Part shown: piece by piece, positions 3,685 through 28,652 of the stretch
Numbering within the stretch: position 1 is the first letter of the stretch
How the letters are laid out: each line of letters begins with the position of its first letter
Made by a program: the position numbers and the translations under genes
The notes under the pieces: generated by a model
Seen by the model: the letters and a program-made list of their open reading frames with translations, nothing else
Databases searched by the model: none
Told to the model about the DNA's origin: nothing
Assembly: GCA_003166055.1 (NCBI GenBank)
Contig: PMWR01000320.1
Span: 5,548-54,998 of the forward strand
Source of the DNA: Acidobacteriaceae bacterium
GTDB taxonomy: Bacteria > Acidobacteriota > Terriglobia > Terriglobales > Acidobacteriaceae
DNA: 49,451 nucleotides
Direction of reading: 5' to 3'

Positions 3685-3752
3685 GCCTTCCGAGTGCGTT
3701 TGGTTCGATAGCTGGCTTGCAGATCAATCACTGCGAGGCGGAGGGTGAAGGT

Positions 3753-5132: not shown

Positions 5133-5321
5133 GCTCTGCTTCACTCTCAAACCTTGATTTCCCGGAACACAAGCCAGTGCCGAGGGGAAAACATGGACGG
5201 CAATTATATGCGGGTCTAAAGGAAGGGGAGAGCTTGCGTCGGCAATTGGCTTGCCCAGCATAGCTCTCCCGCGAGAAACGATGGTGAAGAGTTTGACAAC
5301 GAAGGCCTGCCTTGCCAGGGT

Positions 5322-5519
5322 TTAGATCGCGTTGTTATGAAGCTCGACGCTCAACGTGTCGAACGCGGTGCTAATACCGGTGGCTAAGGCTTTCATGCTG
5401 GCGGTCGCAGCGAATGCGATCAAAGCGACAACCAGTGCGTATTCGACCAGATCTTGCCCGTGGTCGAGTGTAATCAGGCGGCGCAGGCAAAGGAGAAGTC
5501 TCAGGTATTCAGGCCGCAT
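5322..5519 (-). CDS. flp: Flp/Fap-type pilin (second copy)
   Basis: A 65-residue prepilin. After a basic leader (MRPEYLRLLLCLRRLITLDH) comes GQDLVEYALVVALIAF, the Flp signature in which the TadV peptidase cuts after the glycine and the glutamate at +5 and tyrosine at +6 are invariant. The mature part, about 42 residues, is mostly one hydrophobic helix followed by a short polar tail. GAGG lies about 8 nt before the ATG. It follows the better-expressed-looking pilin at 5659 by 139 bp on the same strand and is identical to it over the first 12 residues of the processed region. The leader and C terminus differ, so it may be a minor or alternative pilin. No separate strong promoter was seen upstream of it. 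Confidence 0.88.
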   Translation of the reverse strand: MRPEYLRLLLCLRRLITLDHGQDLVEYALVVALIAFAATASMKALATGISTAFDTLSVELHNNAI

Positions 5520-5658: not shown

Positions 5659-5853
5659 CTAGACCGAGGTGGACAGCGTGGTGCTGATGGTGTTGAAGGC
5701 GGTGTTGAGGCCCTTGGCCAGAGCGTTCATGCCGGCAACTGCGCCGAAAGCGATGAGAGCAACGACCAACGCATATTCCACGAGATCCTGACCTTCTTCA
5801 CGGCTCGCCAGGTCCTGGAACTTAACATACATCTTCAGAAGCAGATTGTTCAT
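5659..5853 (-). CDS. flp: Flp/Fap-type major pilin
   Basis: The ATG at 5853 is preferred over the longer frame (to 5940) because GGGAGA lies 5-6 nt upstream of it and the product (64 aa, starting MNNLLLKMYVKFQDL) has the usual Flp prepilin length. The leader ends in EEG, followed by QDLVEYALVVALIAFGAVAGM. The conserved G-X4-E-Y motif directs cleavage and N-terminal processing by TadV. The mature pilin, about 44 residues, polymerises into the type IVc (Tad) pilus used for surface adhesion. A near-perfect sigma-54 promoter lies about 55-70 bp upstream and a hairpin sits in the 5' leader. These suggest strong, activator-controlled expression, and that this is the major subunit (inference). Confidence 0.92.
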   Translation of the reverse strand: MNNLLLKMYVKFQDLASREEGQDLVEYALVVALIAFGAVAGMNALAKGLNTAFNTISTTLSTSV

Positions 5854-5907: not shown

Positions 5908-5923
5908 AGCAAGTGGTGTGCCA
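5908..5923 (-). promoter_or_regulatory. Sigma-54 (-24/-12) promoter of the pilin genes
   Basis: Read on the minus strand the site is TGGCACACCACTTGCT. It matches the consensus TGGCACG-N4-TTGCW except at one weakly conserved base, and keeps the obligatory GG-N10-GC spacing. The predicted start is near 5897, about 44 nt before the pilin ATG. Such promoters need RpoN and an AAA+ activator; one is encoded at 27240. Confidence 0.82.
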
Positions 5924-12469: not shown

Positions 12470-14035
12470 CTACTGCGGCGGAGCGCTCGACGCGGCACTG
12501 GCCCCGCTGCCCGATGAGGCGCCAAAGGTTCCAGAACCACTTTCAATGATCAACGGCCTCTCGGGTCTCATGCTGTCAATCAGCTTCTCGACGGGAAGGG
12601 ATGGCGGTGCGGGCGCCGGGGTGTTAGCGGCGGTCTTTGCGTCAGGATTGTTCATTGGGATGCCGGAGTTAGGCGGCAGGAACTTTCCTGGGTACTTTGG
12701 CTCGGGCAGGGTTGCCCCGGCTTCAATGGGCGTCACGATCTCCGGCGTCACAATCACGATCAGCTCAGTGCTGACCTTGGTTTTCTGCATCGATTGGAAA
12801 AACTTGCCCAGGATCGGAATATCTCCCAGGAAAGGGATTTTCATGAAGGTTTCGTTGTCGGTGTCGTCCAGCAGTCCGCCGATAGCAAAACTTTGACCAT
12901 CTGCCAATTCGACCTCGGTGTTCACCCTCCGGGTGTCTATGCCGGGCACATCGAATCCCGATATCTCGATGCCATTGGTGAAGTCAAGTGTGCTGACTTC
13001 CGGGGCTACCTGAAGCCGGATGGTTCCGCGGGGAGTAATGGTCGGAATGAAATTGAGCCGAACGCCATACTCCTTGAACTGGATGGTAACTGCTCCGCCG
13101 ACCGCGGAAGAAGAGCCCTGAACCTGCGGATACGGATACTCTCCGCCGGCCAGGAAGCTGGCTTCCTTGCCGTTCGCGGCAATGATATTGGGCTGCGCAA
13201 GAACTTCAGCCAACTGTCTCTGCTCAAGGGCCTGCAAGGTCGCGCCGAGATTCAGGCCGGGCAAGAACGCAAACAGATTCAACTGATTCGAAATGGTCGG
13301 CGCCACCGCCGAAGTACCTCCTGTGGGAAGGTTAAGCCCTGGCGGCGAGAATTGGCCGGTGGTGACTGCGCCGATCGTGTTTCCGAACCCGCTGCTGAAC
13401 AGGTTGATGCCCAATTGAGTCTCTTTGGTGCGGTCGACGCTTTCAAAGCGAACCTTGAGCAGGATTTGCGGGTCTGCCGGTGGCACATCGACGTTGAGCA
13501 GGTTGACAACTTTTCCGCCCGTGGAGGCAATCTTTTCCGCGCGCGCGGAGTTATTGAGATTCTTGACCGTGCCGCGCAGGAAGATGATGCCGTTGTCGGA
13601 GGTGACCTTGAGAGCTTGTCCGGGGAGCTCGGCTCTAAGTTCGCGGCGAATGCCTTCGAGGCTGTCGTCCAATCCAGTCGTACTCGCCCGCACCGTCACA
13701 TTGAAGAACTGACGGCCACCCTTGACATCCCAGATAATGAGGCTGGTTTCTCCAGCAGTCTTGCCGGTTACCATGACCTCGGTCGGGTTGAGCGCTTGAA
13801 CTTCGGCCACCTCAGCCAGCCCAAGTGCTACGCGGGCGATCGGCTGAGCGGTATCCACCAGTACCATTTTTCCAACGGCAACTGAAAGCTCATTCGCCGA
13901 GTCCTGAAGGGAAGCTCCTGCCTGAGCCGCCGGCGCCAGTGCCGGAGAAGTTTGAGCCTGCAGGCCCGACACAGCGCAGAGGAAAACACACAATGCGCTG
14001 AGAGAAGCGATGTTGATTCCAGCTTTCGATCTCAC
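12470..14035 (-). CDS. rcpA: Tad pilus outer-membrane secretin (RcpA/CpaC)
   Basis: A 521-aa protein with a signal peptide ending at LQAQ. Next comes a pilus-secretin N-terminal domain (VGKMVLVDTAQPIARVALG, NPTEVMVTGKTAGETSLIIWD) and a BON-like segment around residues 125-185 (DDSLEGIRRELRAELPG, RGTVKNLNNSARAEKIA). The secretin core follows from about 190, with KVRFESVDRTKETQLGINL, LAQPNIIAANGKEASFLAGGEYP and TVELADGQSFAIGGLL-type features, and PFLGDIPILGKFF near the end. It forms the outer-membrane channel through which the Flp pilus emerges. The C-terminal extension of about 90 residues is rich in Pro, Ala, Gly and Ser. Its ATG overlaps the stop of cpaB by 3-4 bp, so the two genes are translationally coupled. 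Confidence 0.93.
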   Translation of the reverse strand: MRSKAGINIASLSALCVFLCAVSGLQAQTSPALAPAAQAGASLQDSANELSVAVGKMVLVDTAQPIARVALGLAEVAEVQALNPTEVMVTGKTAGETSLIIWDVKGGRQFFNVTVRASTTGLDDSLEGIRRELRAELPGQALKVTSDNGIIFLRGTVKNLNNSARAEKIASTGGKVVNLLNVDVPPADPQILLKVRFESVDRTKETQLGINLFSSGFGNTIGAVTTGQFSPPGLNLPTGGTSAVAPTISNQLNLFAFLPGLNLGATLQALEQRQLAEVLAQPNIIAANGKEASFLAGGEYPYPQVQGSSSAVGGAVTIQFKEYGVRLNFIPTITPRGTIRLQVAPEVSTLDFTNGIEISGFDVPGIDTRRVNTEVELADGQSFAIGGLLDDTDNETFMKIPFLGDIPILGKFFQSMQKTKVSTELIVIVTPEIVTPIEAGATLPEPKYPGKFLPPNSGIPMNNPDAKTAANTPAPAPPSLPVEKLIDSMRPERPLIIESGSGTFGASSGSGASAASSAPPQ

Positions 14036-14883
14036 TGCGTTCCCCCGGGAGTACCGAATTTTGCTTCACTCCGTTTGTTACCGTTAATGACTTCGATTGA
14101 AAAGGCCGGGGGGGCTTTCACGACCTTTGGCTTTGCCGCGACTTTCACGACCTTGGGCGGCGCCTGGCCCGCAAAGAGGTTGACCATGGCGGTACCGGGA
14201 ACCTGGTTGATCGTGGTATCGAGCGGGTTCCGCAACACAAGCTGGATTTTTGTCTGGTTGCTCGCCAGGCTCAGCGTTTCGGCCTGCTCCGGCGTCACGA
14301 GCAGGTTAACGACTTGAACCGGATGCGGTTTGCCCTCGGCGTCCTTTTGAATATCCTGACCGGCCGACAAAACCTGAATGTTTTGCAGCAGCGTCTGGGT
14401 CAATGTGCCGGTTTCCAGGTTGCGAGCCTGATCTCCCGGGGGATTGCCCGAGATGAGAACGTCCACGCGCATTCCCGGAGTGACGAAGCCGGCCACGCCC
14501 ACGACATCGTCGACCTTGACTGCGGTCGCTCGCATCCCCTGAGGAATGGTGGCTGCCAATCCACCGCCTGAACCAACCGCGGCAAGGCGGTTTTCGTTAA
14601 TCGGCTCGCCCGCATAGATGTCGGAGATCACGCCCCGGCCAATCGCATTTTCCGGCCGAAGCAGAACGCCCTTGGGCAGCGCTCCGTTGATCTCGATGGT
14701 GGACAGGTTAGCCGCAGTGAGAACCGCTCCGAGTTTGATGTCGGTGGCAGCCGCAACCACTTTCGTGGAGGGCACCGGTTTGGCCTGGTTCAATTGCTTG
14801 CCCACGAGCCGCCATACGAGGAAGCCGCATGCCGAGGCAATCACGAAAGCCAGGAGGAGAATCGTAAGTAGTCTTCGGTTCAT
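14032..14883 (-). CDS. cpaB: Flp pilus assembly protein CpaB/RcpC
   Basis: The 283-aa product has an N-terminal membrane anchor (LLTILLLAFVIASACGFLVW). A SAF domain spans about residues 40-110 (VVAAATDIKLGAVLTAANL, GRGVISDIYAGEPINENRL). A RcpC-like periplasmic domain follows (MRATAVKVDDVVGVAGFVTPGMRVDVLI, LLQNIQVLSAGQDI, VNLLVTPEQAETLSLAS). CpaB proteins sit in the periplasm and support the secretin, possibly binding peptidoglycan or glycan through the SAF fold. The C-terminal stretch of about 45 residues has repeated Lys-Val-Val motifs (PPKVVKVAAKPKVVKAP). It is the first gene of the short cpaB-rcpA unit. Confidence 0.9.
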   Translation of the reverse strand: MNRRLLTILLLAFVIASACGFLVWRLVGKQLNQAKPVPSTKVVAAATDIKLGAVLTAANLSTIEINGALPKGVLLRPENAIGRGVISDIYAGEPINENRLAAVGSGGGLAATIPQGMRATAVKVDDVVGVAGFVTPGMRVDVLISGNPPGDQARNLETGTLTQTLLQNIQVLSAGQDIQKDAEGKPHPVQVVNLLVTPEQAETLSLASNQTKIQLVLRNPLDTTINQVPGTAMVNLFAGQAPPKVVKVAAKPKVVKAPPAFSIEVINGNKRSEAKFGTPGGTQ

Positions 14884-16802: not shown

Positions 16803-18644
16803 CTACGTGGCAGTGTTGGGAATCAACCGCGGCTTGGTAAAGCTGGCCGCGATTGCCGAGAAGATGTCGGCTATCTGAGTTTCCGGATTCGACGCCGACT
16901 GGCAACTGGTACTGACTCCGGAACCGCTTTGAAGATAGTCGGAGTAGAAAGTGCTCGAGCCGGTGGCAATAGAGGAGGCAATATTCTCCATCGTGATGCA
17001 CGGCGTAAGCGCCGAAGCCGACGAGAAAGATGCGTTCAGAGGCACAAGGAGGTTAGACCCGGTGGCCGTCATCGTGACATCGGTAAAGTCGTCGGCGTGG
17101 CTTCCGGAGCCGCATCCCGACTGCTCCGAGCCATAGGCGACCGCGTAGACCGTGGTTCCCGCCTTTGTGGCGGCCTGGGCAGCCAGAATTGCCTGCTGGC
17201 ATTCATCGAAGAAGTCAGGATACAGACCGGAGACCGACCCGGTGGCTTCCGAGGTTGGGGTCGTGTAATGGGCAGCTACATATGCGCTCGTGTTCGGAGT
17301 GCTTTTCAACGTGTCGTACCCGGTTGGATATCCCGTGCCGGTCACAATTGTGGACTTCGTGGAAGTGTTGGCCGACGGCGTCTGCGAGAGAGAACCCTGC
17401 GGAAAATAAATCCACTGGGTGTTCGCCTGTCCGTCGCTGAGCAGGATGATCGCGTTCTGCGAGTTCGTATTGCCGGGCACGGCTTGCTCGGCGAGCAATG
17501 CCGACTGCGCCGCATAGAGTACGGCCGCGTAGTAGGTGATGCCCTCGCCGACGTTCACGGTGTTGACGATGGAGTTGGAAGTGCCGGTACCCGTAGCGCC
17601 GTTCAGAGCAATACCGTTTGGGGAGACGGGCAAGCAGCCGACCGTTCCTCCGTTGCCGCCATTTCCCACCGCCTTCACGATGGAGGAACTGGGATTCAGA
17701 TTCCCCGTGGATGGGGAGTTGGCTTGGTAGTAGTCGCTCACAAAGCCATTGGCGTCCGCATCGCTCGCTCCGTATGTGACCTCATAGCTCGCAGACCATT
17801 TGGTCCCGTTTGGATAGGCGTATGTGAGCGGCGTGTAGCCCGTGACTCCGGGAGTTGGAAGGGTCAGCACCTGATACGGCAAAGGCTCAATATAGGTTGT
17901 GCCGCTGCAAGCGTTGGCCACCGGGAGATCCGTCGTGATGATGTTGGGGAATGTCCAAAGGCTGACGTGGAAGTTTGCGTCCGCGTTGGTGCAGGTGGTC
18001 TGGCCAAATTGGCACGGGTTGATGGATCCCAGCAGCGTCTGAATTCCCTGCAGCGCGCACTGGAATTCCGTGGGGCTGCCGGTACAGTTGGAGTCGGTGG
18101 TGGACATCGACCCCGAAGCATCTTCAATGATGGCTACATTCCAATTATTCGCAACGCTATTCATCGTCGCCGTCGCCTCGGCTTTGACTGTCAGCGTAGG
18201 AACGCCGAAGAACCTCATGAAGAATGTGTTGATGGTGTTCGTCTGGTAGGCGTGGACAGCGTTTTTGGGCGAACTGGTTCCGCAGGTTTCACCATTCGGC
18301 TCGAGCAGGTTCAGGCAAACCGGCGTGATGACGGTCGCGACAGTGCCCGTTTCCCGCAGCGTGCTGCTGGAGTTCGTTTCTCCGGCCGAGGCACTATACT
18401 GGTTTCCGTAAGCGGTTGCGTCGCCGCTTCCTGAAGACAAGTACACCTCGCCAGCCGCGGCCAGGGCCGCCGCATTGGCGGTGTTCTGAAGGTTTGCGTT
18501 ATCGGCATAGGCCAAGCCGCCGTCAATAACGAGGCCGGCCATGGCAACCAAAGAGAGAAATCCCAAAACGACCCAGATAAGCACCTGCCCGCTCTGGTTA
18601 TTGAGGAACTTTTCGGTAAAGGACGACTTAGAAATCATTTTCAT
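16803..18644 (-). CDS. tadG: TadG-like pilus assembly protein with von Willebrand A domain
   Basis: The 613-aa protein starts with a TadG N terminus: a short basic leader, NNQSGQVLIWVVLGFLSLVAMAGLVIDGG (one helix), then the typical YADNANLQNTANAAALAAAGE. A von Willebrand A domain follows from about residue 168 (NWNVAIIEDASGSMS). The MIDAS motif D175-x-S-x-S179 is intact, so metal-dependent adhesion is possible. Later segments include NAIILLSDGQANT and TTVYAVAYGSEQSGCG, with several cysteines. TadG is a minor, pseudopilin-like part of the Tad system; VWA-bearing forms may sit at the pilus tip as adhesins (family knowledge plus inference). GAGG lies 8 nt before the ATG. It follows tadE by 43 bp and ends at a strong terminator. 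Confidence 0.88.
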   Translation of the reverse strand: MKMISKSSFTEKFLNNQSGQVLIWVVLGFLSLVAMAGLVIDGGLAYADNANLQNTANAAALAAAGEVYLSSGSGDATAYGNQYSASAGETNSSSTLRETGTVATVITPVCLNLLEPNGETCGTSSPKNAVHAYQTNTINTFFMRFFGVPTLTVKAEATATMNSVANNWNVAIIEDASGSMSTTDSNCTGSPTEFQCALQGIQTLLGSINPCQFGQTTCTNADANFHVSLWTFPNIITTDLPVANACSGTTYIEPLPYQVLTLPTPGVTGYTPLTYAYPNGTKWSASYEVTYGASDADANGFVSDYYQANSPSTGNLNPSSSIVKAVGNGGNGGTVGCLPVSPNGIALNGATGTGTSNSIVNTVNVGEGITYYAAVLYAAQSALLAEQAVPGNTNSQNAIILLSDGQANTQWIYFPQGSLSQTPSANTSTKSTIVTGTGYPTGYDTLKSTPNTSAYVAAHYTTPTSEATGSVSGLYPDFFDECQQAILAAQAATKAGTTVYAVAYGSEQSGCGSGSHADDFTDVTMTATGSNLLVPLNASFSSASALTPCITMENIASSIATGSSTFYSDYLQSGSGVSTSCQSASNPETQIADIFSAIAASFTKPRLIPNTAT

Positions 18645-18670: not shown

Positions 18671-18706
18671 AGTACTCAAACTCCGATTCAGTACTCCAAC
18701 TCCGAT
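18671..18706. repeat. Tandem 17-bp repeat across the tadE stop codon
   Basis: Two copies (18671-18687 and 18690-18706) of AGTACTCMAACTCCGAT differ at one base and flank the TGA stop. On the minus strand both encode SE(L/F)EY followed by a stop, suggesting a recent small duplication at the 3' end of tadE. Confidence 0.75.
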
Positions 18707-19260
18707 ACTGTTGCCGCAAGCTGGCAGGTTGGTGCAAAGTTTCTTCCGTAAACACCGATAGTGCAAGGATAGGTCGCGGAAACCGAGACGGATTTCCCCG
18801 AGCTCGCACCATACGTGGTCCCCAAGTCTGTGGCGCAGGCGGTTTCTCCTTTTGTAGAAGCTGTCCCATTGACCGTGACCGTCAGGCCGGCGCCCAAGTT
18901 TGTTGCGTTGAAGTTCGGCGCCGCTTCCTTCAGCGCCCCATACGCTGTGGCACAAGGATCTGTACTGGACCCGCGGCTGACCGCGACCAACTGCGCCGCC
19001 GACCCCACGGCACTTTGCAGTGTCATTTCATTGATGTACGCGATTCCGAATGTGAAAATGCCCGTGAGCAGAATCAGCAACAACGGGAGCGCAATGGCGA
19101 TCTCAACCAGTGCCTGCCCCTCGTTGCGGGAGCGAAGGAAAGCGCCGACCCTGGCCACTCGCGACCGGGTCTGGACACGCACACCTTTGGAGTCCGCGGG
19201 AGGCTTACCCCCTTGAGCGGAGATCCTGGCTTGTCGCCCAAAACCATTTCGTGCAGACAT
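18688..19260 (-). CDS. tadE: TadE-like minor pilin/pseudopilin
   Basis: The product is 190 aa when started at the ATG at 19260 (MSARNG), which has AAGGGG 6-7 nt upstream. The ATG at 19275 lacks a ribosome site. A basic N-terminal region of about 45 residues precedes EGQALVEIAIALPLLLILLTGIFTFG, the TadE signature with the Glu that marks prepilin-like processing. A periplasmic part of about 120 residues with four cysteines follows. TadE and TadG are processed by the prepilin peptidase and help initiate or tip the pilus. The coding sequence ends in codons for SELEY, and a 17-bp copy of these terminal codons is repeated straight after the stop. Confidence 0.9.
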   Translation of the reverse strand: MSARNGFGRQARISAQGGKPPADSKGVRVQTRSRVARVGAFLRSRNEGQALVEIAIALPLLLILLTGIFTFGIAYINEMTLQSAVGSAAQLVAVSRGSSTDPCATAYGALKEAAPNFNATNLGAGLTVTVNGTASTKGETACATDLGTTYGASSGKSVSVSATYPCTIGVYGRNFAPTCQLAATVSELEY

Positions 19261-19410
19261 ATTGTTCCCCTTCATCTACTGTTCACTGAATAGTCCGACT
19301 CCACAATCCCTCGTTAGCGTCAAATTGACCCGCCAATCGTAATGACACCATATTACCATAGATTGATATTGTGGTTACTTTTGGTACAAACTCTCGAGAA
19401 TGTGGGAGAT

Positions 19411-20379
19411 TCAGCCCTTTTTCAGAAGTCTCAGGAACCTTTCCAGCTCTTTTCTGTTGACCCCGTCAACGAGAGCGTTTCTTCCCTGCTCGGGGGTCAG
19501 GGAGCTTTTCATCACGAATTGGAGGCCTACGCCGTCATTTCCCCAGCGGACGGCGCGGGAATGCACGGAGATGGAGCGCTCGGCGGATTCATCTCCGAGG
19601 TCTGTCCGTTGCAGGGTCATGAGGACCAGGGTGCCGGGGTACCAGCGCTCTTCGGTGACCACATAGAGGCCGGTGGAACTGATGTCCTTGATGTTGCGCG
19701 CCTGGGGAGCGGCGCCGGTCCAATAATATGCAGCCAGGCCGGAGGCCGGTATCCGAGGCGCCTTCCTGGGATCGGGAGACCACCAGCGTTCCAGCCAGTG
19801 CTTGGGCGGCTTGACGTCGGTCATACCCGGTTCGATCAGCTCCATTTCATGCGGCTTTTCGGGATTCAGGTCGATCTCGACTTCGTCGGAGCGGGGCTTT
19901 AGCTGCAAGACTCCCGGGCCACCGCTCCACAGCGGTTTTTCTCTCAGGAGCACCGCGCCTTGCACGGCTCCGGTGATGCTGGAACTGGAGAATCCTTCGA
20001 GGCGGCGCTCCATTTCATCGGCGGGGCAGAGCATGAGCTGATCGCCGGTCTGGGTCTGGGACGAATAGATCGAGTGGGTGGGCAGCGCCAGGACGCTGGC
20101 GGGCTGGGGGCTCAATGGGGTGATGCGAAATGTCGGGAACGACTCGACCAGGTCGGTAACCCGGCAATCCTCGTCCAGATAGATGAGATCGAGCGGGGCG
20201 CTGACGCCTGAATCCGGGATGCCCCGGAACGGATTCATCCAGAGGCCCTCGCCGGACTGCAATGCAAGCGTCAACAGCATGTCTTTGAGGCTCGCGTAGG
20301 GAACGTCGGCCGCGGTGACCTCCAGGCCGAGAAAGCACTCGCGAGTTTGGTTGTACGCGCAAACCTTTTGTGAATCCAT
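19411..20379 (-). CDS. DUF192-like domain fused to a PilZ domain
   Basis: A 322-aa soluble protein. Residues about 1-120 resemble DUF192: SGEGLWMNP, then APLDLIYLDEDCRV, then HSIYSSQTQTGDQL. This matches the stand-alone DUF192 protein at 11825 in order and spacing, although the NxTR and FMRFP parts are degenerate. Residues about 205-290 form a PilZ domain with R205-KAP-R209 and D232-ISST-G237, the two motifs that bind cyclic di-GMP, and a closing SRAVRWGNDGVGLQFV. PilZ proteins couple cyclic di-GMP to pili, adhesion or motility; here it lies in the Tad operon between the twin small proteins and tadE. GGGAGG lies 4-5 nt before the ATG. The binding prediction follows from motif conservation; the role of the N-terminal domain is unknown. 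Confidence 0.8.
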   Translation of the reverse strand: MDSQKVCAYNQTRECFLGLEVTAADVPYASLKDMLLTLALQSGEGLWMNPFRGIPDSGVSAPLDLIYLDEDCRVTDLVESFPTFRITPLSPQPASVLALPTHSIYSSQTQTGDQLMLCPADEMERRLEGFSSSSITGAVQGAVLLREKPLWSGGPGVLQLKPRSDEVEIDLNPEKPHEMELIEPGMTDVKPPKHWLERWWSPDPRKAPRIPASGLAAYYWTGAAPQARNIKDISSTGLYVVTEERWYPGTLVLMTLQRTDLGDESAERSISVHSRAVRWGNDGVGLQFVMKSSLTPEQGRNALVDGVNRKELERFLRLLKKG

Positions 20380-20709
20380 AAAGCCTCCCGCCCGCGGCGG
20401 TTACCCGGCAACCGGGTGTTGTGAGGGCATCCCAGTTGTCAATTCGACATCGGTGCAGCCGGTGAAAGCTACGAACCAGCATCTCAGACGGCGATCGCCG
20501 GGTTTAAAAATGCATACCCAATGCAGGCCGCGGTGCGGTGCCCAGTTGGGCCGCGCAAGGGCGTACGCCACCTACTTCCCCTGCCGAGAGCATCTCCCAG
20601 AGACAATCAATGCCAGTGGGCAGCCATTTTGGGCAGATGGGACTATCGAATCTGGCCGAGGGCAACCGCGCACCTGCGCGGCTCCTCCGGCGCTTTTGCA
20701 AATCCCGTA
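20380..20709. other. Gap between small protein 2 and the PilZ gene
   Basis: No ORF here looks genuine. A hairpin ACCCGG-CAA-CCGGGT (20403-20417) lies about 24 nt upstream of the PilZ start. A GC-rich inverted stretch (CCGCC/GGCGG) then abuts its ribosome site and could modulate translation. No promoter was recognised. Confidence 0.4.
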
Positions 20710-20805
20710 CTACTTGACCCTGGTTCGGCGGCGCTGAATCAGAATGATCAGTACGATGACAAACAACACTCCGGCGACGATTTGGATAATCGTAGTGCTA
20801 TCCAT
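20710..20805 (-). CDS. 31-aa single-helix membrane protein, copy 2
   Basis: The ORF is too short for routine gene calling but well supported: it encodes MDSTTIIQIVAGVLFVIVLI followed by ILIQRRRTRVK and a TAG stop. GGGGAG lies 7 nt before the ATG. The protein is a short polar N terminus, one hydrophobic helix of about 18 residues and a strongly basic cytoplasmic tail (QRRRTRVK). It differs from its neighbour at 20980 at two positions only (I17/V, I21/V), while the codons differ more often. That pattern, mostly synonymous change, means selection on the protein. It lies on the tad strand between tadC and the PilZ gene. Function is unknown; the context suggests a small component or regulator of the inner-membrane pilus platform. 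Confidence 0.85.
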   Translation of the reverse strand: MDSTTIIQIVAGVLFVIVLIILIQRRRTRVK

Positions 20806-20979
20806 GGAAAACTCCCCTTTCGGTGAACAAGCTGCTATTTCCGCTTCCGAGTCATGACAGAACGCGAGCGACACGCGCCGGGCAAAGCGGCGGTGTTCCC
20901 GATTCTGTTCAACGCGGCACTTGTCAGCGGAATCCCTGGCCTTTGCAAGGCGCCGCTGAAAACTTCTCCGCCAGACCCG

Positions 20980-21075
20980 CTATTTAACGCGGGTGCGACG
21001 GCGCTGAATCAGAACGATCAACACGACGACAAATAAGACGCCGGCGACAATCTGAATAATGGTAGTACTGTCCAT
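20980..21075 (-). CDS. 31-aa single-helix membrane protein, copy 1
   Basis: This encodes MDSTTIIQIVAGVLFVVVLI followed by VLIQRRRTRVK and TAG. AAAGGAG lies 8 nt before the ATG and only 14 bp separate it from tadC, so it is almost certainly translated from the tad mRNA. Predicted topology: N-out, one helix (about residues 6-23), and a cytoplasmic tail with five basic residues. It is the near-identical twin of the gene at 20710, with 174 bp between them. No family was recognised. Both would be missed by automated annotation with the usual length cut-off. Confidence 0.87.
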   Translation of the reverse strand: MDSTTIIQIVAGVLFVVVLIVLIQRRRTRVK

Positions 21076-21089
21076 TCTGCCAACTCCTT

Positions 21090-22004
21090 TCACTTAGCCC
21101 CGAACGTGGATGAGAACGAATCGACCATGATAATGATCGCAGGCCCCAGAGTAACCAGGAAGAGCGAGGGAAAGATGAAAAAGACAAGCGGAAAGATCAA
21201 TTTAATGGTGGTCTTTGCCGCCGCTTCTTCAACCTGCTGCACGCGCTGGGTTCTCAGGGTATCGGAATGAACGCGCAATGTCTTGGCGATGCTGGTTCCA
21301 AACTGTTCCGACTGAACCAGCATGTTGACCAGGCTTCGAATGCTGTCCTCGCCGGTGCGCTCCGCGAGGTTTTTCCAGGCTTCAGAACGGGCGCGCCCGG
21401 CGCGCTGCTCCAGGACGACGATATTCAATTCGTCGCACAACTCGGGCTGCGCCAGAGCCAATTCAACTGAAGTGCGCGCGGTCGCCTGGTCCAGGCTGAG
21501 TCCGGCCTCAACGCAGATGATCAGCAGATCGAGGACGTCCGGCAGCCCTCGCCGCATCCGTTTCTGGCGGCCCTTGATCCGCGCGCCCAGCCAGAAGTCC
21601 GGGATCAGGAACCCGAGGCCAAGGCACAGCAAATAGATGAAGGGGCCGATGAGGTGCGCCAGTCCGCTGACTAAGGCGAGGATGCAAAGAATCACGGGAA
21701 CCACTACCTTGGCGCCGTAGAAGACCTTGACCGCGGACTCATTGCGGAGGCCGCCTCGGGTGAGGCGCTTCATGGCGACTCCGACCTCGGCCTGGCTCTT
21801 GGGGAGGACATTTTCGAAGTGCTCCACCACGCCGCCAATCGAAAAGCCCGTTTGTTGAATGGTGCTCAACAGGGTTTTCGGCTTAGCCTGCGGGTTGATC
21901 ACCTCGGAAATCCGCTGGAGCATGGCTTCGCGATAGAACAGCAGCAGCCCCCCGCTCGCGATCAGCAGGAACATGATGAAGAACGAAATCACCGCAAAGC
22001 CCAT
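21090..22004 (-). CDS. tadC: Tad inner-membrane platform protein TadC (GspF family)
   Basis: A 304-aa protein with an N-terminal helix (VISFFIMFLLIASGGLLLFY), a central pair of helices around residues 95-130, and a cytoplasmic GspF/T2SSF domain. The domain carries MRRGLPDVLDLLIICVEAGLSLDQA and LVQSEQFGTSIAKTLRVHSDTLRTQR, the TadB/TadC signature. A C-terminal helix (LIFPLVFFIFPSLFLVTLGPAIII) follows. With TadB it forms the inner-membrane platform on which the TadA ATPase acts. It starts 9 bp after tadB and is followed 14 bp later by the small membrane protein gene. Confidence 0.93.
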   Translation of the reverse strand: MGFAVISFFIMFLLIASGGLLLFYREAMLQRISEVINPQAKPKTLLSTIQQTGFSIGGVVEHFENVLPKSQAEVGVAMKRLTRGGLRNESAVKVFYGAKVVVPVILCILALVSGLAHLIGPFIYLLCLGLGFLIPDFWLGARIKGRQKRMRRGLPDVLDLLIICVEAGLSLDQATARTSVELALAQPELCDELNIVVLEQRAGRARSEAWKNLAERTGEDSIRSLVNMLVQSEQFGTSIAKTLRVHSDTLRTQRVQQVEEAAAKTTIKLIFPLVFFIFPSLFLVTLGPAIIIMVDSFSSTFGAK

Positions 22005-22013
22005 AAGCCCTCT

Positions 22014-22982
22014 TCAGACCTCCATATTGACAATGTGCCGGATGATCAAGCCGCCGATCACGATCATGATGCTGGCCACCCAAAGCAGCTTGATGCCGAT
22101 CGGTCGCGTCCACAGGATGCTCATCAATGTCGGGTTCACGAAATACAAAGCGATTCCCAGGATAATGGGAAGAAGAGTCAGGACGATCCCGGTCATGCGG
22201 CCCTGCGCGGTGTGCGTCGCCACCTGCCGCTTGAGACGGAACCGTTCCCGGATCACCCAGGAGGTCTTGTCGAGCACCTCGGCAAGATTGCCGCCGGTCT
22301 CCTTTTGGATCATGATCGCAGTCGCAACGATTCTAAGATCCTGCATGGGAATGCGGTTGAGCAGGTTGTCGATGGCGGTTTTCATTTCAAGGCCGTAGTT
22401 TTGCTCTTCGAAACATATCCTGAACTCGGTCCCGATGGGATCGGGACTTTCGCGAGCCACCAGGCCCATCGCGGCGATGAGGCTGTGTCCGGCGCGGAGG
22501 GCGCTGACCATCATATCGAGAGCTTCCGGGAGCCCCTTCTCGAACTTGCCGAAGCGTTTACTGCGTTTGAACATCGCAATGGCGATCGGCATGAAGCCCA
22601 GGAACGCTCCGACCAGAAGGGCCAGCGGCACGGAGCCCGTGCGCCAATAGAGCACGTAGGCCGGAACAACAAAACAGAGGAGGCACATCGAGAGCATGCC
22701 GCCCACTGTCCACTTGAGATCGGCCTGTGCGAGCAGGCCGCGCAGCAGCGGTCCGATCTGGAGTTTGAGCAGCCGATGATTGAGCCAGGGAATGGTGCTG
22801 AGCTTGTCGCTCTTGCGAAGATTGAGAATCTCGTTGCGCGCTTCCACGCTTTCGGTGGCCAGAGCCGAGTCGAGGGTGGCGATGACCTGCTTTGCCTGCC
22901 GGTCTCCGCCCATGGAGGCGCTCACCACCAATGCAACAACCAAAAACACTCCGACAAATACAAGAACAAGAATCAACATCAT
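22014..22982 (-). CDS. tadB: Tad inner-membrane platform protein TadB (GspF family)
   Basis: A 322-aa protein. It has an N-terminal helix (MLILVLVFVGVFLVVALVVSAS), two central helices (GMLSMCLLCFVVPAYVLYWRTG and LALLVGAFLGFMPIAIAMF), and a GspF domain. The domain carries KFEKGLPEALDMMVSALRAGHSLIAAMG and MIQKETGGNLAEVLDKTSWVIRERFRLKRQ. Two C-terminal helices complete it. It is the partner of TadC. It begins 21 bp after tadA and is co-transcribed with it. Confidence 0.93.
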   Translation of the reverse strand: MMLILVLVFVGVFLVVALVVSASMGGDRQAKQVIATLDSALATESVEARNEILNLRKSDKLSTIPWLNHRLLKLQIGPLLRGLLAQADLKWTVGGMLSMCLLCFVVPAYVLYWRTGSVPLALLVGAFLGFMPIAIAMFKRSKRFGKFEKGLPEALDMMVSALRAGHSLIAAMGLVARESPDPIGTEFRICFEEQNYGLEMKTAIDNLLNRIPMQDLRIVATAIMIQKETGGNLAEVLDKTSWVIRERFRLKRQVATHTAQGRMTGIVLTLLPIILGIALYFVNPTLMSILWTRPIGIKLLWVASIMIVIGGLIIRHIVNMEV

Positions 22983-23003: not shown

Positions 23004-24284
23004 TTAGTTGACCAGCGTTTCGCGCTCGAACAGGCTTGGGGGCAGGATAATGCCCGCGACGCGGAGCTTGTCGAGGAAGCGGGGACGGATATGTGTCGGC
23101 TGGAAGGCGCCAATGACCTTGCCGTCGGGCCCAATTCCTTTTTTGTTGAAGGCAAATATCTCCTGCATGCTGATCACGTTTTCTTCCATGCCGGTAATTT
23201 CGGAGACGCTGGTAACCTTGCGCGAGCCGTCGCTCATGCGCGAGGCCTGAATGACGATGGTGATGGCTGAGGCAATCTGCTGGCGCACGGATTTCTCCGG
23301 CATATTCATATTGCCCATGGCCACCATGGACTCCAGGCGGGAGATCGCGTCACGCGGCGTATTGGCGTGAATCGTGGTCATCGAGCCTTCGTGGCCGGTA
23401 TTCATGGCCTGCAACATGTCAAAGGCTTCCTCGCCGCGGATCTCGCCCATGATGATGCGGTCGGGACGCATGCGGAGGCAGTTGATCAGCAACTGGCGCT
23501 GACGGATGGCGCCCTGTCCTTCAATGTTGGGCGGCCGGGTTTCGAGGCGCACGATGTTTTCCTGGGCCAGCCGGAGTTCAGCGGCGTCCTCAATGGTGAC
23601 CAGGCGCTCGCTGTTGGGAATGTACTGGGAAAGAATGTTCAGGAGCGTGGTTTTACCGGAGCCGGTGCCGCCGGAGATGACGATGCTGATGCGGGCTTTC
23701 ACCGCGGAGGCAAGCACCTCCATCATCTCCGCCGAAATGCTCTTGAGGACCACCAGCTGATTGGCGGCGATGGGGCCGGTGCCGAAGCGGCGGATGGACA
23801 GGGAGGGGCCGTCGAGCGCCAGAGGGGGGATGATGGCGTTCACACGCGAGCCGTCGGGCAGGCGGGCATCGACCATGGGCGAGGACTCGTCCACTCTGCG
23901 GCCGACGCGCGAAACGATGCGGTCGATGATCTGGAGCAGATGGCGATCGTCGCGAAAGGTGGTGTTGACCTTCATAAGAAGTCCACCCTTTTCAACGAAA
24001 ACGTGATCCTTGTCGTTGACCAGGATGTCGGAAATCTTCGGGTCCCTGAGCAGCGGCTCAAGCGGACCGAGGCCAAAGACTTCGTCCAGCAGGTCGGCCT
24101 GGATCTTTTCCTGTTCGTCGAAGTTCAGGGGAACCCGCTGGTCGGCGATGATCTCTTTGACAATGCCTGATACTGCCTGCCGGGCCTGGCTGGTGTTGAC
24201 CCGCGACAGTTTCTCCAGATCCAGCTTGGAGATCAGGGTCCGATGTATTTCCGCTTTGTATTTTTCCAGATTCAGCAGTTCCAA
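23004..24284 (-). CDS. tadA: Tad pilus assembly/secretion ATPase TadA (CpaF)
   Basis: A 426-aa cytoplasmic ATPase of the type II/IV secretion family. Features seen: an N-terminal helical domain (residues 1-90), [18 protein letters not shown], the Walker A motif GGTGSGKT at 205-212, the Asp box [29 protein letters not shown] (Walker B) and the His box [17 protein letters not shown]. It powers assembly, and perhaps retraction, of Flp pili. Length and motif set are those of CpaF. It lies 42 bp downstream of tadZ and upstream of tadB in the main tad operon. Confidence 0.95.
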
Positions 24285-24326: not shown

Positions 24327-25619
24327 TCATCCAAACAGACTAAAACCTTTTTTCTTTGCCGGAGCCTCCTGCTGCCCGGTAACGGATCGCGCCATTTCCT
24401 TGATCTGCCGGGAAATGGGCGAATCTTCGAGCACCAGCGGGGTGGCCGTGTTCTGCATGCGCCGCACCGCCGCGAAATCATTGGGAATCTTCCACTGCGC
24501 GGGCCTGGTCAGGGCCTTCGTAACATGCTCATCGCCGACCCCCAGCGCGCGAGGCTGATAGCGGTTGATCACGATCTCCACTTTAGGGCCGCCCGAGGGG
24601 AAGAACTGGCTGATCAGGCGATTGGAATTGCGGAGTTCGGGAATTCCGGCCTGGGTCACTAGATAGATCGTACTCGCATCTCTGAACAGGGCGGTTCCCG
24701 CCAGATCAAGCCTGGATCCCACATCGACCACCACGTTGTCGAAGTCCTGACGCGCAACCGAAATCAACTTGTCGATGGACTCGTTGGATGCCGTGAAGTT
24801 GGGGAACTTGCCCGGAGCGGCAAGCACGGACAGCCCCGAGCTGTGCTTGATCAGGAGCTTGTTAAGAAAACTGGCATCCAGACGGCCGGAATCCTGAAGA
24901 GCGTTAATCGTCGAGAAGTCGGCGACCAGCCCAAGGTTGAGCGCGGCGTCTCCCAGCGGGAGGTCGAGATCGATCAGCAGGGTGCTCTGGGAAGTGTCCT
25001 GAGCCAGGGCCACCGCAAAATTGCAGGATATCGTGGTGACGCCGGTGCCACCCTTTGCGCCGAAGAATACCAACAGCCTGCCGCCGACTTTTCGCGACGG
25101 ACGGTGGGCGGGGCGCCTCGCAGCGGCGCGAACCAACGCCTCGGCCATGATGGTGTGGGAGAAAGGAAGCGTCAGATACTCGCGGGCGCCGGCCCGCATG
25201 CAACGTACCAGCAGGTCCGGGTCGGTCTTTGACGAATAGACCATCACCGTCACCGCGCCGTTTGCGCAGATGCTCTCCACAAGCTCAAGGGCGTATTCAG
25301 GGTTGCTGTCGAGGTCGATGATAATCACGTCGTAGCGCTGTTCGAGCAACCTTGGCAAATCGTCCAGGCCGGGGGGATAAGCGGAGAACTCGCGAACTTC
25401 CGCTCCCTGGCATTCCGCGAGCGCGCTTGCTGCCGCCTTTCGGCGCTCTTCGTCCGGGCCAACCAACGCGATCGACAAGGGATCCGAGCCGAAGGAATCG
25501 GGGGAATGAGAGTCGATATACGGGAAAGAGTCTGAACTCACTGAATTACTGCTCCATTTTGCGTGATTCTTCACTTCCGAATTAACTTCCCCTTGATCGA
25601 ACCTCGGCGCGTTGGGCAT
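24327..25619 (-). CDS. tadZ: Tad pilus localisation protein TadZ (CpaE), receiver-like plus ParA/MinD-like ATPase
   Basis: The product is 430 aa from the ATG at 25619 (MPNAPRFDQG), preceded by AAAGGA; an upstream ATG at 25640 overlaps tadV and has no better site. After a Ser/Asp-rich N terminus comes an atypical receiver domain (about 46-165) with D102 at the phospho-acceptor place but Leu in place of the conserved Lys (YLTLPFS). A MinD/ParA-type ATPase then carries the deviant Walker A GAKGGTGVTT at 187-196. Key later segments are LLIDLDLPLGDAALNLGL and NVVVDVGSRLDLAG. TadZ positions the pilus machine at a cell pole. Confidence 0.92.
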   Translation of the reverse strand: MPNAPRFDQGEVNSEVKNHAKWSSNSVSSDSFPYIDSHSPDSFGSDPLSIALVGPDEERRKAAASALAECQGAEVREFSAYPPGLDDLPRLLEQRYDVIIIDLDSNPEYALELVESICANGAVTVMVYSSKTDPDLLVRCMRAGAREYLTLPFSHTIMAEALVRAAARRPAHRPSRKVGGRLLVFFGAKGGTGVTTISCNFAVALAQDTSQSTLLIDLDLPLGDAALNLGLVADFSTINALQDSGRLDASFLNKLLIKHSSGLSVLAAPGKFPNFTASNESIDKLISVARQDFDNVVVDVGSRLDLAGTALFRDASTIYLVTQAGIPELRNSNRLISQFFPSGGPKVEIVINRYQPRALGVGDEHVTKALTRPAQWKIPNDFAAVRRMQNTATPLVLEDSPISRQIKEMARSVTGQQEAPAKKKGFSLFG

Positions 25620-25636
25620 GATGTTCCTTTCCCTAC

Positions 25637-26176
25637 TCAACGTGCAAAGAACGAAATCAGCGTCCCAACTGCGATGGCCGGAGCGTAAGGCATCTTGCGC
25701 TTCAGCAGACCAGGGAGAACCGGTTCCGGATCGCCTCGCAATTCACCCTCTTTCGAATCGGAGAAGTGAATGCGTATTCGTTTGAACTGGGCAACTGCAA
25801 ACGCGCCTGCCGCCCAGCACAAAATGATGATTCCTCCTGCCATGGCTGTGATCACCAGCGCAAAAATCATTTGGGCCGGGCCAATCCACGCGCCAATTGC
25901 GGCGCACAGCTTGACGTCCCCCGCTCCCATTCCGCCGACAAAAAAAAGTATGCCGTAAATCAACAAGCCAAGACCAAGACCTTCAAAACATTGGCCGACC
26001 CCATGCCAGCCAAATCCATGGCTGCTCCCGTGCCAGTCCTGGCGCCAGGGTGAGACAAGTATCCCCGCCACCAGGAAGGGAAACACCAGCCAATTCGGGA
26101 TGCGGCGGCTGCGCAAGTCAGTGAAGGTCGCCACAGTGAGAACAATCAACGTCGGCCACCAGGCGAACGAGTGCAT
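25637..26176 (-). CDS. tadV: Prepilin peptidase TadV (CpaA), A24 family
   Basis: A 179-aa polytopic aspartic peptidase. The first catalytic Asp lies in TDLRSRRIPN after helix 1, and the second in the GxGD motif (GGMGAGDVKLC). At least four helices are visible. The enzyme removes leaders from the Flp pilins at the G|QDLVEY site and from the TadE and TadG pseudopilins. GGAG lies 9 nt before the ATG. It is the first gene of the main minus-strand tad operon, just downstream of a putative sigma-54 promoter. The C-terminal half has an extended loop (FSDSKEGELRGDPEPVLPG). Confidence 0.92.
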   Translation of the reverse strand: MHSFAWWPTLIVLTVATFTDLRSRRIPNWLVFPFLVAGILVSPWRQDWHGSSHGFGWHGVGQCFEGLGLGLLIYGILFFVGGMGAGDVKLCAAIGAWIGPAQMIFALVITAMAGGIIILCWAAGAFAVAQFKRIRIHFSDSKEGELRGDPEPVLPGLLKRKMPYAPAIAVGTLISFFAR

Positions 26177-26320: not shown

Positions 26321-27099
26321 GAAGGGTTTCACGTGGTGAAGCAGGACGTATACACAGGCCGCGCCGGCAGGAAGCAGCGCGTGCGAAGAATAAGGCCACG
26401 CCAGCGGATCGTCGCCCGGACAGGCTGTGCGGGTGCACTCGAGCATCAAAACGCCCGGTCGTCCGGCGAATTCTCCGGAATCGCCAGCGTACGTCGACTC
26501 AAATGCCGATGGACACAGCTTTGCGGGCAGCGGCGCAAGCCACGAGGGGAATTTCGGCCCTTCTCGAATTCGACATGCTCATTGCGTGCAATTGACGTGC
26601 CACTTGTCAATGTAAACAACATAAAAAGTAGTAACCCGCCAGGATAACCAAAAAACGTAGGTACTCGATAAAACGTTACCCTTGTCGGCGGCGAGTACCG
26701 CAAGTGGGATATGGACAATATCTCCGATTTCGTGCTCAAGATGTGCCCCGGTTCGATGTAATGCCCGGGGATGATCAATTCAAAGTGTTTTAAATGAATA
26801 ATTTATGTGCGCAACACCAGGGCATGCCGAAGAAGAAACCTCATTACCGCCATCGTTTCGTCGCCCTCCGTGCCAGGCGTTCACACCCGCGGTGGGAACA
26901 TGATTCGTTACCAATGTGGCATTGACCGGCCCAGGAACGGTATCTACGATGGTTGGAATGGAACAACAGGCATCGATCAGCTGGAGTTTTTTAAGCGCCT
27001 TAAGGCTTGTTTCCAGCCGGAGTGTGTCCTCGCGTGAAGGGCGCAGGCGGCCAATGTGAGTGAACACGCGGATCCGACGAACGGTTTTTGAACGCAACC

Positions 27100-27239: not shown

Positions 27240-28652
27240 ATGATCAGGATCGGACTGTACTCGGAAGATCGCACGCTGCACCCGCTTCTTTCCTCTGTCC
27301 TCGGGAAGGATTTCCAGGTTCTGCTCGAATCGGATGAGGAAGGCATGAATCACCTGATCTCGAACGGTGATTGCGATGTCATGATTCTGGACCTGAATTC
27401 GAATCATGGTTCGTTGCAGGAGCGCATCGGTTTTTCGCGGGAGTTAATCGCATCCAATCTTCCCTCAGTGGTGATGGCGGACGATGGCCTGCGGTCTACG
27501 GCATTCGAACTGGTGCGGAGCGGAGCCTTCGGCTACTGTCGCAGACCGCCCTCGATTCGCGATCTGAAGACCATGCTCAGCCGGGCATACGAAAACTCCT
27601 CGCTGAAGCAGCAATTGCAAACCGCGCAGCATCGGCTGGAAAAGCCAGCCGGTTGCGACCGGCTGATCGGATCGAGCACGCATATGCAGCGCGTGTATCA
27701 GTTGGTGCGGCGGGTCACCAATCTCAACGCCTCGGTGCTTATAACCGGCGAAAGTGGAACCGGCAAGGAATTGATTGCTCGCGCCATTCACAACCTGGGA
27801 TCTCGCGCCAGCCGCCCCTTTGTGGCCGTATCGTGCGGCGCGATCCCTGAAACCCTGATCGAAGCCGAGTTGTTCGGACATGAGAAGGGCGCATTTACCG
27901 GCACGGTTGGGGCGCGCGAGGGCTACTTCGAGCAGGCTGGTGACGGAACGCTCTTTCTGGATGAAATCGGAGATCTGAGCCTGTTTACGCAGGTGAAACT
28001 CCTGCGCGTGCTGCAGCAGATGGAGTTCAACCGCCTGGGCAGCAACCGGCTCATCCCATTGCGTGCACGGCTGATCTTCGCCACGCATCAGGATTTGGGG
28101 AAGTTAGTGGCCGAAGGTAAATTCCGCCAGGATCTTTACTACCGCATCAACGTCATGCGCATTGAATCGCCGGCACTGCAGGAGCACCCTGAGGACATCC
28201 CGCAGATTGCCATGCACTTTCTTGACCACTATTCGAAGGTCTTTCAGAAGCCAATGGAGGATATTGATCCGGACGCACTGTCCCTGCTGCAGAATTACTC
28301 CTGGCCTGGAAATGTGCGCGAACTGGAAAATGCGATGCAACGGGCCATCATCCTTTCCGCCGGGCCCACGGTTCGCGCGGAGGATATTACGCTTCACAGC
28401 CAGGACGACGATATTGTGGACATCGGCGATGTTGTCGACATTGGCGATTACAATCCCGCAGGCTCCTTTGAGCGGCAGCTTCGCGACTATAAGATCAAAC
28501 TGGCCGTCTCGGCGGTACGCGAGCACAACGGGAACAAGACGCTGGCTGCACGCAGCCTGTGTATCTCGCGAGCCTATCTTCATCGCCTGATCAGGCTGGC
28601 CGAACCGGAGCCACTCTTCGAGAACGATCTTCGCCAGTCGATCACTGCCTGA
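27240..28652 (+). CDS. Sigma-54-dependent transcriptional activator (NtrC/PilR family) with degenerate receiver
   Basis: A 470-aa protein of three parts. Residues 1-120 are receiver-like: E9-D10 and D51 are present, but the switch Thr is Ala (VVMADDG) and the conserved Lys is replaced by Arg (YCRRPPS). Residues about 142-380 are the AAA+ sigma-54 interaction domain, with Walker A GESGTGKE at 170-177, GAFTGT at 217-222 (usually GAFTGA) and Walker B GTLFLDEIGD at 236-245. A Fis-type helix-turn-helix sits at the C terminus (NGNKTLAARSLCISRAYLHRLI). It activates RpoN promoters by ATP hydrolysis. It lies divergently next to the tad operon, and sigma-54 sites precede the pilin, tadV and itself, so it is the probable Tad activator. 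No histidine kinase lies nearby. Confidence 0.9.
   Translation: MIRIGLYSEDRTLHPLLSSVLGKDFQVLLESDEEGMNHLISNGDCDVMILDLNSNHGSLQERIGFSRELIASNLPSVVMADDGLRSTAFELVRSGAFGYCRRPPSIRDLKTMLSRAYENSSLKQQLQTAQHRLEKPAGCDRLIGSSTHMQRVYQLVRRVTNLNASVLITGESGTGKELIARAIHNLGSRASRPFVAVSCGAIPETLIEAELFGHEKGAFTGTVGAREGYFEQAGDGTLFLDEIGDLSLFTQVKLLRVLQQMEFNRLGSNRLIPLRARLIFATHQDLGKLVAEGKFRQDLYYRINVMRIESPALQEHPEDIPQIAMHFLDHYSKVFQKPMEDIDPDALSLLQNYSWPGNVRELENAMQRAIILSAGPTVRAEDITLHSQDDDIVDIGDVVDIGDYNPAGSFERQLRDYKIKLAVSAVREHNGNKTLAARSLCISRAYLHRLIRLAEPEPLFENDLRQSITA

What the first reader, a model, noticed from the sequence alone, without database searches (positions are those of the whole stretch)
20710..21075. Twin 31-aa membrane proteins inside the tad operon
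Two tandem genes encode near-identical small proteins (MDSTTIIQIVAGVLF..., one helix, basic tail QRRRTRVK). Each has a strong ribosome site, and most differences between the copies are synonymous. They are below the usual gene-calling threshold and I recognise no described family. Position directly after tadC suggests a small inner-membrane component or modulator of the Tad platform. This is the best candidate for an undescribed component in the window.
Basis: partly seen in the sequence, partly recalled or inferred. Interest (0 to 1): 0.78.

Follow-up and report, generated by a model that had tools for sequence, protein, structure and literature searches.

The report
Tiny membrane proteins beside Tad pilus genes
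Soil Acidobacteriota carry one to three copies of a conserved 31-residue membrane protein directly behind the pilus-platform gene tadC; it looks like an undescribed small helper part of the Tad pilus machine, though what it does has not been tested.

Summary
Two 31-codon genes lie on the minus strand at 20980-21075 and 20710-20805 in a tad operon, 14 and 284 nt behind the tadC stop; of 19 nucleotide differences, 16 count as synonymous. All 22 close relatives found with TadC alone carry 1-3 copies right behind tadC. In a location-blind profile search of 396 genomes of the phylum, 33 of 35 matches lie on the same strand directly behind a TadC gene. In more divergent acidobacterial tad loci, 12 of 52 flanks without a profile hit also encode a 29-51-residue, hydrophobic, basic-tailed protein there; the same scan gives 0 of 60 on the other strand. 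Against exclusivity: one 55-residue relative lies behind a terminase-like gene with no tad gene within 19.5 kb, 40 of 58 lower-scoring TadC flanks lack it, and 14 of 14 plasmid tad loci outside the phylum lack it. No Pfam, NCBIfam, PADLOC or PHROG match passes a cut-off or is better than E 0.047. Best reading: an undescribed accessory transmembrane helix of the TadB/TadC platform. Coding status and Tad linkage are well supported; the molecular role is inferred.

The parts
20980..21075 (-). copy A of the 31-residue membrane protein (coordinates include the TAG stop)
   Evidence: 14 nt behind the tadC stop; ribosome site AAGGAG 21084-21089
20710..20805 (-). copy B of the 31-residue protein (includes the TAG stop)
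   Evidence: ribosome site GGGGAG 20812-20817; AlphaFold2 model one helix, residues 3-30, mean pLDDT 93.8
20915..20962 (-). putative RNA hairpin 3' of copy A (weak; this stretch was in the training set of the model)
   Evidence: RNAalifold found no pairs on the cruder alignment
20647..20693 (-). putative RNA hairpin 3' of copy B (weak; this stretch was in the training set of the model)
   Evidence: same caution
21090..22004 (-). tadC, platform protein (T2SSF domain)
   Evidence: Pfam PF00482
22014..22982 (-). tadB, platform protein (T2SSF domain)
   Evidence: Pfam PF00482
23004..24284 (-). tadA, CpaF-type motor ATPase
   Evidence: Pfam PF00437
24327..25640 (-). tadZ/CpaE-like (AAA_31; receiver-like part just under its cut-off)
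   Evidence: Pfam
25637..26176 (-). tadV-like prepilin peptidase
   Evidence: Pfam PF01478
19411..20379 (-). degenerate DUF192 fused to a PilZ domain; next gene behind the twins
   Evidence: PilZ residues 205-290 (23.8 bits, cut-off 22.5); DUF192 residues 39-115 (17.4 bits, below its cut-off of 27)
18688..19275 (-). TadE-like
16803..18644 (-). TadG-like
26588..26602 (-). sigma-54 type promoter sequence (TGGCAC-N5-TTGC) upstream of the tad operon
   Evidence: 2 matches in the window, mean 0.23 in shuffles (2 of 100 shuffles reach 2)

Best explanation
The twins are two functional copies of an undescribed small membrane-protein family that belongs to the Tad pilus machine of Acidobacteriota. Shown: they are under protein-level selection and are kept directly behind tadC across Acidobacteriaceae-type tad loci. 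Predicted: each is a single helix across the inner membrane, N-end in the periplasm and the QRRRTRVK tail in the cytoplasm (positive-inside rule, established knowledge). Inferred: translated from the tad mRNA right behind TadC, one or more copies pack sideways, perhaps through a face made of R8, A/S11, F15, V18, L19 and L22, against the TadB/TadC platform. There they stabilise it, or occupy or gate the openings between TadB/TadC pairs through which pilins are thought to enter; the Arg-Arg next to the membrane would touch lipid head groups or the TadA motor. In role it would resemble CydX, KdpF or AcrZ beside their larger membrane partners.
For: Starting from TadC alone, 22 of 22 relatives (54-77% identical TadC) carry it behind tadC, 40 copies: 6 loci with one, 14 with two, 2 with three. 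Location-blind, 33 of 35 profile matches in 29 of 396 genomes lie on the same contig and strand directly 3' of a TadC match, the first copy within 200 nt of the match end (in most genomes only the 20 best candidates of the first look were scored). All 22 genomes whose TadC scores at least 380 bits have it (11 of them supplied rows to the TadC profile, 11 did not). In divergent loci 12 of 52 flanks have a protein of the same build, against 0 of 60 antisense and 0, 0, 0, 1, 0 of 60 at five offsets. In G255 about 1.6 kb lies between tadC and the small gene, which is still the genome's only profile match. Labels cluster on the TadC tree: 10 changes against 28.6 shuffled. tadC in front is constant while the gene behind varies. 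pN/pS is 0.326 between first copies (171 pairs, synonymous sites near saturation) and 0.07 between the twins. Model: one helix, residues 3-30. Openings between CpaG/CpaH pairs in a predicted model: passages of PMC12019362.
Against: No physical or genetic evidence exists. 40 of the 58 lower-scoring TadC flanks examined lack it at that place, and 14 of 14 plasmid tad loci outside the phylum lack it, so a Tad system can work without it. A profile search of 27 of the genomes lacking it behind TadC found a convincing copy elsewhere in only 2. The conserved helix face is only suggestive (permutation p = 0.057). In G255 the gene stays with a DUF192 gene, not with tadC, so the partner could be that gene. 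The divergent short proteins may be look-alikes rather than relatives; as a label of their own they cluster weakly (8 changes against 11.3, 4 of 500 shuffles as low).
Confidence: 0.52

Rival explanations
1. It is part of the Tad operon but not of the platform: a regulator, membrane adaptor or assembly helper acting on another component (the DUF192(-PilZ) protein, TadE/TadG or the secretin), for example linking c-di-GMP sensing to the motor.
For: In 17 of 20 loci of the location-blind search a relative of the window's DUF192-PilZ gene follows on the same strand (L023, L024 and L030 repeat loci already held). In 7 of the 20 small-gene flanks among the 60 fetched, the next gene is DUF192 by Pfam. 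In G255 the small gene stays with a DUF192 gene about 1.6 kb from tadC.
Against: The other 13 of those 20 flanks show no DUF192-like ORF next to the small gene (by eye; not profile-tested). Eight of eight tested genes directly behind tadC in loci without the small gene match DUF192 (six above the cut-off, two below), so DUF192 does not need it.
Confidence: 0.28
2. Type I toxin-like or other membrane-active peptide that happens to sit in the operon; tandem copies and hairpins would be the usual layout of such modules.
For: Small hydrophobic helix with a basic tail, one to three tandem copies, putative hairpin behind copies in one clade; a long-form relative beside a terminase-like gene. The resemblance to toxins is recalled, not tested.
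Against: Fixed place behind tadC, protein-level constraint, presence set by TadC clade. No PADLOC match; the only PHROG match, a holin family, is weak (E 0.082 and 0.29).
Confidence: 0.07
3. A minor pilin or pilin-like filament subunit.
For: Short hydrophobic helix, encoded in a pilus operon with a prepilin peptidase gene.
Against: No leader and no G/XXXXE processing site; the charge pattern predicts the reverse topology. Flp-like pilins are encoded elsewhere in the window at 5659-5853 and 5322-5519.
Confidence: 0.04
4. Not a functional protein: a translated leader or coupling device that sets expression of the next gene.
For: Tight spacing, strong ribosome sites, long spacers with possible hairpins.
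Against: Most differences between copies are synonymous while residues such as 7, 14, 19 and 22 are kept in 90% or more of weighted sequences; the gene is kept where the following gene differs.
Confidence: 0.04

Closest known systems
Small accessory subunits of membrane complexes (CydX of cytochrome bd, KdpF, AcrZ)
   Same: About 30-50 residues, one membrane helix, beside a larger membrane partner (listing and abstract starts of PMC4325964, PMC6005532, PMC7267776; the rest recalled)
   Different: No sequence relation shown; the partner here would be a type IV filament platform, and tandem copies are common. Function untested.
Tad/Flp pilus machine (TadA, TadB, TadC; CpaF, CpaG, CpaH in Caulobacter)
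   Same: The gene is an operon member directly behind tadC
   Different: The passages I saw of PMC11300603, PMC13170226 and PMC12019362 name no such small protein; 14 of 14 plasmid tad loci outside the phylum lack it
Flp/Fap pilins (PF04964)
   Same: Short hydrophobic proteins of tad systems
   Different: No leader peptide, no processing site, no Pfam match
LPXTG-type and PVV-CTERM C-terminal anchors (TIGR01167, NF051874)
   Same: Membrane helix followed by a basic cluster
   Different: Below the curated cut-offs (14.3-14.4 bits against 15.9; 12.4-13.4 against 27); here the helix is the whole protein

Membership tests
Tad pilus machine component | Encoded with tad genes in related genomes | tested here: met
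   22 of 22 TadC-found loci; 33 of 35 location-blind matches; one exception in G007
Tad pilus machine component | Needed for, or part of, pilus assembly | not testable with these tools
   needs genetics or biochemistry
Tad pilus machine component | Present in Tad systems generally | tested here: not met
   0 of 14 plasmid tad loci (13 Pseudomonadota, 1 Chloroflexota; 14 of 268 records with a TadC match examined); 40 of 58 lower-scoring acidobacterial TadC flanks without it at that place
Flp/Fap pilin (PF04964) | Pfam match | tested here: not met
   of two Flp-like ORFs elsewhere in the window one is above the cut-off (33.7 bits against 32.2), one below (22.7)
Flp/Fap pilin (PF04964) | Leader with prepilin peptidase site | tested here: not met
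   sequence starts MDSTTII; no G/XXXXE (the motif is recalled)
Small accessory membrane subunit (CydX-like in role) | Single membrane helix, gene beside that of a larger membrane partner | tested here: met
Small accessory membrane subunit (CydX-like in role) | Physical association with the partner complex | not testable with these tools
   no complex prediction or binding assay was available
Type I toxin | Antisense RNA antitoxin and toxicity | not tested
   no transcript data

The most novel reading that the evidence does not exclude
The 31-residue protein is a previously unseen subunit of a distinct acidobacterial Tad motor: a lateral-gate helix that seats between TadB/TadC pairs and switches the platform between pilin insertion and removal, with gene copies tuning its dose.
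Probability: 0.15. Interest if true: 0.85.

Novelty: new variant of a known kind. Interest (0 to 1): 0.6.

Why it matters
How Tad platforms let pilins in and out, and what sets the direction of the single motor ATPase, is open; one recent study speaks of a possible unidentified regulatory element (passage of PMC12019362). A 31-residue partner kept behind tadC across part of a large soil phylum would give that question a simple genetic handle. It also shows a conserved family that public annotation leaves as hypothetical or misnames.

Tried and rejected
Pfam, NCBIfam, PADLOC and PHROGs with the small protein: nothing at a cut-off, best E 0.047. Solved structures: no match to the TadC profile at E <= 0.01; three weak matches (E 0.18-0.84) to the small-protein profile. 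Rfam on the window: none at gathering scores. Whole genome of the window: not held. Idea that the twins are the pilins: rejected. Idea that the 3' hairpin is a genome-wide repeat: not supported; in 4 genomes the best match (E 0.27) is the G001 locus itself and the others are weaker (only 150 of 3,731-5,173 candidates per genome were scored), but the model also failed to recover the loci of G002, G005 and G006. The hairpin is weak altogether: RNAalifold gave no pairs on A4; on a helix I chose after looking at A5, 10 cells changed on both sides and 0 of 500 shuffles reached that; 3 of 19 spacers fold with z below -2 against mononucleotide shuffles. A single-chain model of TadC with the small protein was considered and not run, since the tool returns no contacts. 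Rows left out: A1 uses 37 of 42 copies; L022 is missing from the TadC profile; of 78 TadC matches under 380 bits, 58 flanks were fetched and 20 were not; L048, L059 and L082 end early at contig or chosen ends, so far offsets have fewer than 60 usable flanks; the sequences were filtered for a basic cluster, so its figures for residues 25-27 are by construction (A2, shows R25 and R26 invariant without that filter). Paper searches for an earlier description; among the listed titles and abstract starts I saw none that describes it, but the library lacks most subscription journals and the bioRxiv collection.

Full report
What is there. On the minus strand the window holds a tad operon: prepilin peptidase (25637-26176), TadZ-like (24327-25640), TadA (23004-24284), TadB (22014-22982), TadC (21090-22004), then the twins, then a DUF192-PilZ gene (19411-20379), TadE (18688-19275), TadG (16803-18644), CpaB/RcpC (14032-14883) and a secretin (12470-14035). 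The twins are ORFs of 31 codons at 20980-21075 and 20710-20805. Copy A starts 14 nt behind the TadC stop, with AAGGAG in the gap. Copy B follows after a 174-nt spacer with its own GGGGAG. The proteins differ at two residues; one search counts 16.0 synonymous and 3.0 non-synonymous changes (path-averaged).

Are they genes? Starting from TadC alone, a scan of species genomes gave 22 loci (118 stretches matched a pattern, 22 encode a TadC relative, 54-77% identical; the method reaches close relatives only). All 22 encode the small protein on the same strand just behind tadC, 40 copies in all: six loci with one, fourteen with two, two with three. The nearest is a Terracidiphilus MAG (77%). In 28 of 38 loci measured, the small start lies 18-23 nt behind the last sense codon of tadC (stop codon included), in ten 29-119 nt. 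A1 holds 37 of the 42 copies (window included): 31 columns, M1 (start codon, sometimes GTG or TTG), L22 and R25-R27 invariant. pN/pS between first copies is 0.326 over 171 pairs, with pS 0.59 close to saturation. The large protein database gives 167 matches at E <= 10 with the 54-codon ORF as query; of the 120 listed most are 31 residues long and none has a Pfam domain. So gene callers do find it, contrary to the finding.

Is it tied to Tad? A profile search of whole genomes, blind to location, found matches at E <= 0.001 in 29 of 396 genomes drawn evenly from the phylum, 35 matches in all (in most genomes 20 candidates of a first look were scored). A TadC profile in the same 396 genomes matched 89 at E <= 1e-30. 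Comparing coordinates, 33 of the 35 matches lie on the same contig and strand directly 3' of a TadC match, the first copy never more than 200 nt from the end of the match. The exceptions are G264:C317, in a contig with a tadA fragment and a DUF192 gene but no TadC match, and G166:C71, a 14-position match inside a 192-codon frame, probably chance. All 22 genomes with TadC of at least 380 bits have the protein. A caution: the TadC profile was built from 16 TadC rows of loci with the small protein, and 11 of those 22 genomes supplied rows; the other 11 did not.

A counter-example. In the seven genomes, ten matches below E 1e-11 are the tad copies, and one more (G007:C44, E 4.7e-6) is a 55-residue long form like that of L095-L098. 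It lies behind a terminase-like gene (PF03237), and no window Tad protein matches within 19.5 kb around it. Divergent members of the family can therefore live away from Tad.

How far does it go? I fetched 60 flanks behind TadC: 58 of the 78 TadC matches under 380 bits, plus two from the top group. Eight of the 60 had profile hits already (six of the 58). A mechanical scan (ATG/GTG/TTG start, ribosome site, 24-60 residues, a hydrophobic stretch, two adjacent basic residues near the end, start within 250 nt of the stop) is positive in 18 of 60: those eight and ten new ones. The same scan gives 0 of 60 on the other strand and 0, 0, 0, 1, 0 of 60 at offsets of 500 to 1700 nt; on L001-L022 it is positive in 22 of 22. 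Two more (L063, L070) show with other limits, so 12 of 52 flanks without a profile hit carry such a protein; 40 do not, among them L054 with a 27-residue hydrophobic ORF without the basic cluster. The one positive at an offset, in G255, is that genome's only profile match (E 2.6e-4). It lies about 1.6 kb behind tadC and in front of a DUF192 gene, as if something had come between. In its sister on the tree, G358, the scan finds nothing in 19 kb. A profile search of 27 genomes that lack the gene behind TadC gave five matches at E <= 0.05, of which G264 and G255 are convincing and the other three lie in long or unlikely frames. On a tree of TadC C-termini (73 rows, 100 columns, flagged as too few columns) the three labels need 10 changes against a shuffled mean of 28.6, 0 of 200 shuffles as low. 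Whether the divergent proteins are true relatives or look-alikes in the same slot cannot be settled at this length. Outside the phylum, 14 plasmid tad loci (13 Pseudomonadota, 1 Chloroflexota; of 268 records with a TadC match) have none within 600 nt of tadC; chromosomes of other phyla were not sampled.

What could it do? The model is one helix, residues 3-30, mean pLDDT 93.8, pTM 0.51; a lone helix is an easy target, so this says little beyond 'helix'. Positive-inside reasoning gives N-out, C-in. Over 147 distinct sequences (effective number 25, filtered for a basic cluster) the best kept positions before the tail are I7, R8, G12, L14, L19 and L22; the conserved side of the helix is 8, 11, 15, 18, 19, 22, with p = 0.057, so suggestive only. 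What stays constant across clades is tadC in front. What follows varies: relatives of the window's DUF192-PilZ gene in 17 of 20 location-blind loci, DUF192 in 7 of the 20 small-gene flanks of the 60, other ORFs in the rest (by eye). Conversely DUF192 stands directly behind tadC without the small gene in eight loci tested. Together with published models in which CpaG/CpaH (TadB/TadC) form a trimer of pairs separated by openings in the membrane through which pilins may pass (passages of PMC12019362; trimer models also in passages of PMC11300603 and PMC13170226), the most economical reading is an accessory helix of the platform. The steps from 'kept behind tadC' to 'binds TadB/TadC' and to 'stabilises or gates' are inference.

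Evolution of the copies. Some duplications are old: first and second copies of L007/L009 and of L013/L015 each match their counterpart in the other genome best. Others are recent or homogenised (L017 99% and L019 98% identical within the genome). In the Terracidiphilus-like clade a short GC-rich hairpin may follow copies; the support is modest and post hoc.

Verdict. A real, conserved, undescribed small membrane-protein family tied to tadC in Acidobacteriota, with at least one member elsewhere. Not a pilin, unlikely to be a toxin. The platform-subunit role is the best guess, at about 0.52 (0.55 before the G007 counter-example was followed up).

Noticed in passing
19411-20379 (-): The gene behind the twins is a degenerate DUF192 domain fused to a PilZ domain; in other acidobacterial tad loci a plain DUF192 gene stands behind tadC or behind the small gene. 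DUF192 next to Tad genes looks like a recurrent, unexplained partner.
   Followed up: partly
26588-26602 (-) and 5909-5923 (-): The only two exact TGGCAC-N5-TTGC (sigma-54 type) sites of the window lie upstream of the tad operon and 55 nt upstream of an Flp pilin ORF; mean 0.23 in shuffles. A sigma-54 activator gene lies divergently at 27240-28652. The exact pattern matches in only 4 of 116 fetched loci, and there inside or near tadC rather than upstream of the operon.
   Followed up: partly
5659-5853 (-) and 5322-5519 (-): Two tandem Flp-like pilin ORFs far from the assembly genes; the second is below the Pfam cut-off.
   Followed up: partly
20647-20693 and 20915-20962 (-): Possible RNA hairpin about 20 nt behind each small gene, also seen in close relatives; weak, post hoc.
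   Followed up: partly
L095-L098 (first small ORF behind tadC) and L123 (minus strand, around 2100-2300): A long form of 51-55 residues with an extra N-terminal stretch; four copies stand behind tadC, one in G007 stands behind a terminase-like gene without tad genes.
   Followed up: partly
L033: Copy of the small gene in a contig with a tadA fragment, a DUF192 gene on the other strand, and ORFs that look like FHA and serine/threonine kinase proteins (by eye), without TadC next to it.
   Followed up: partly
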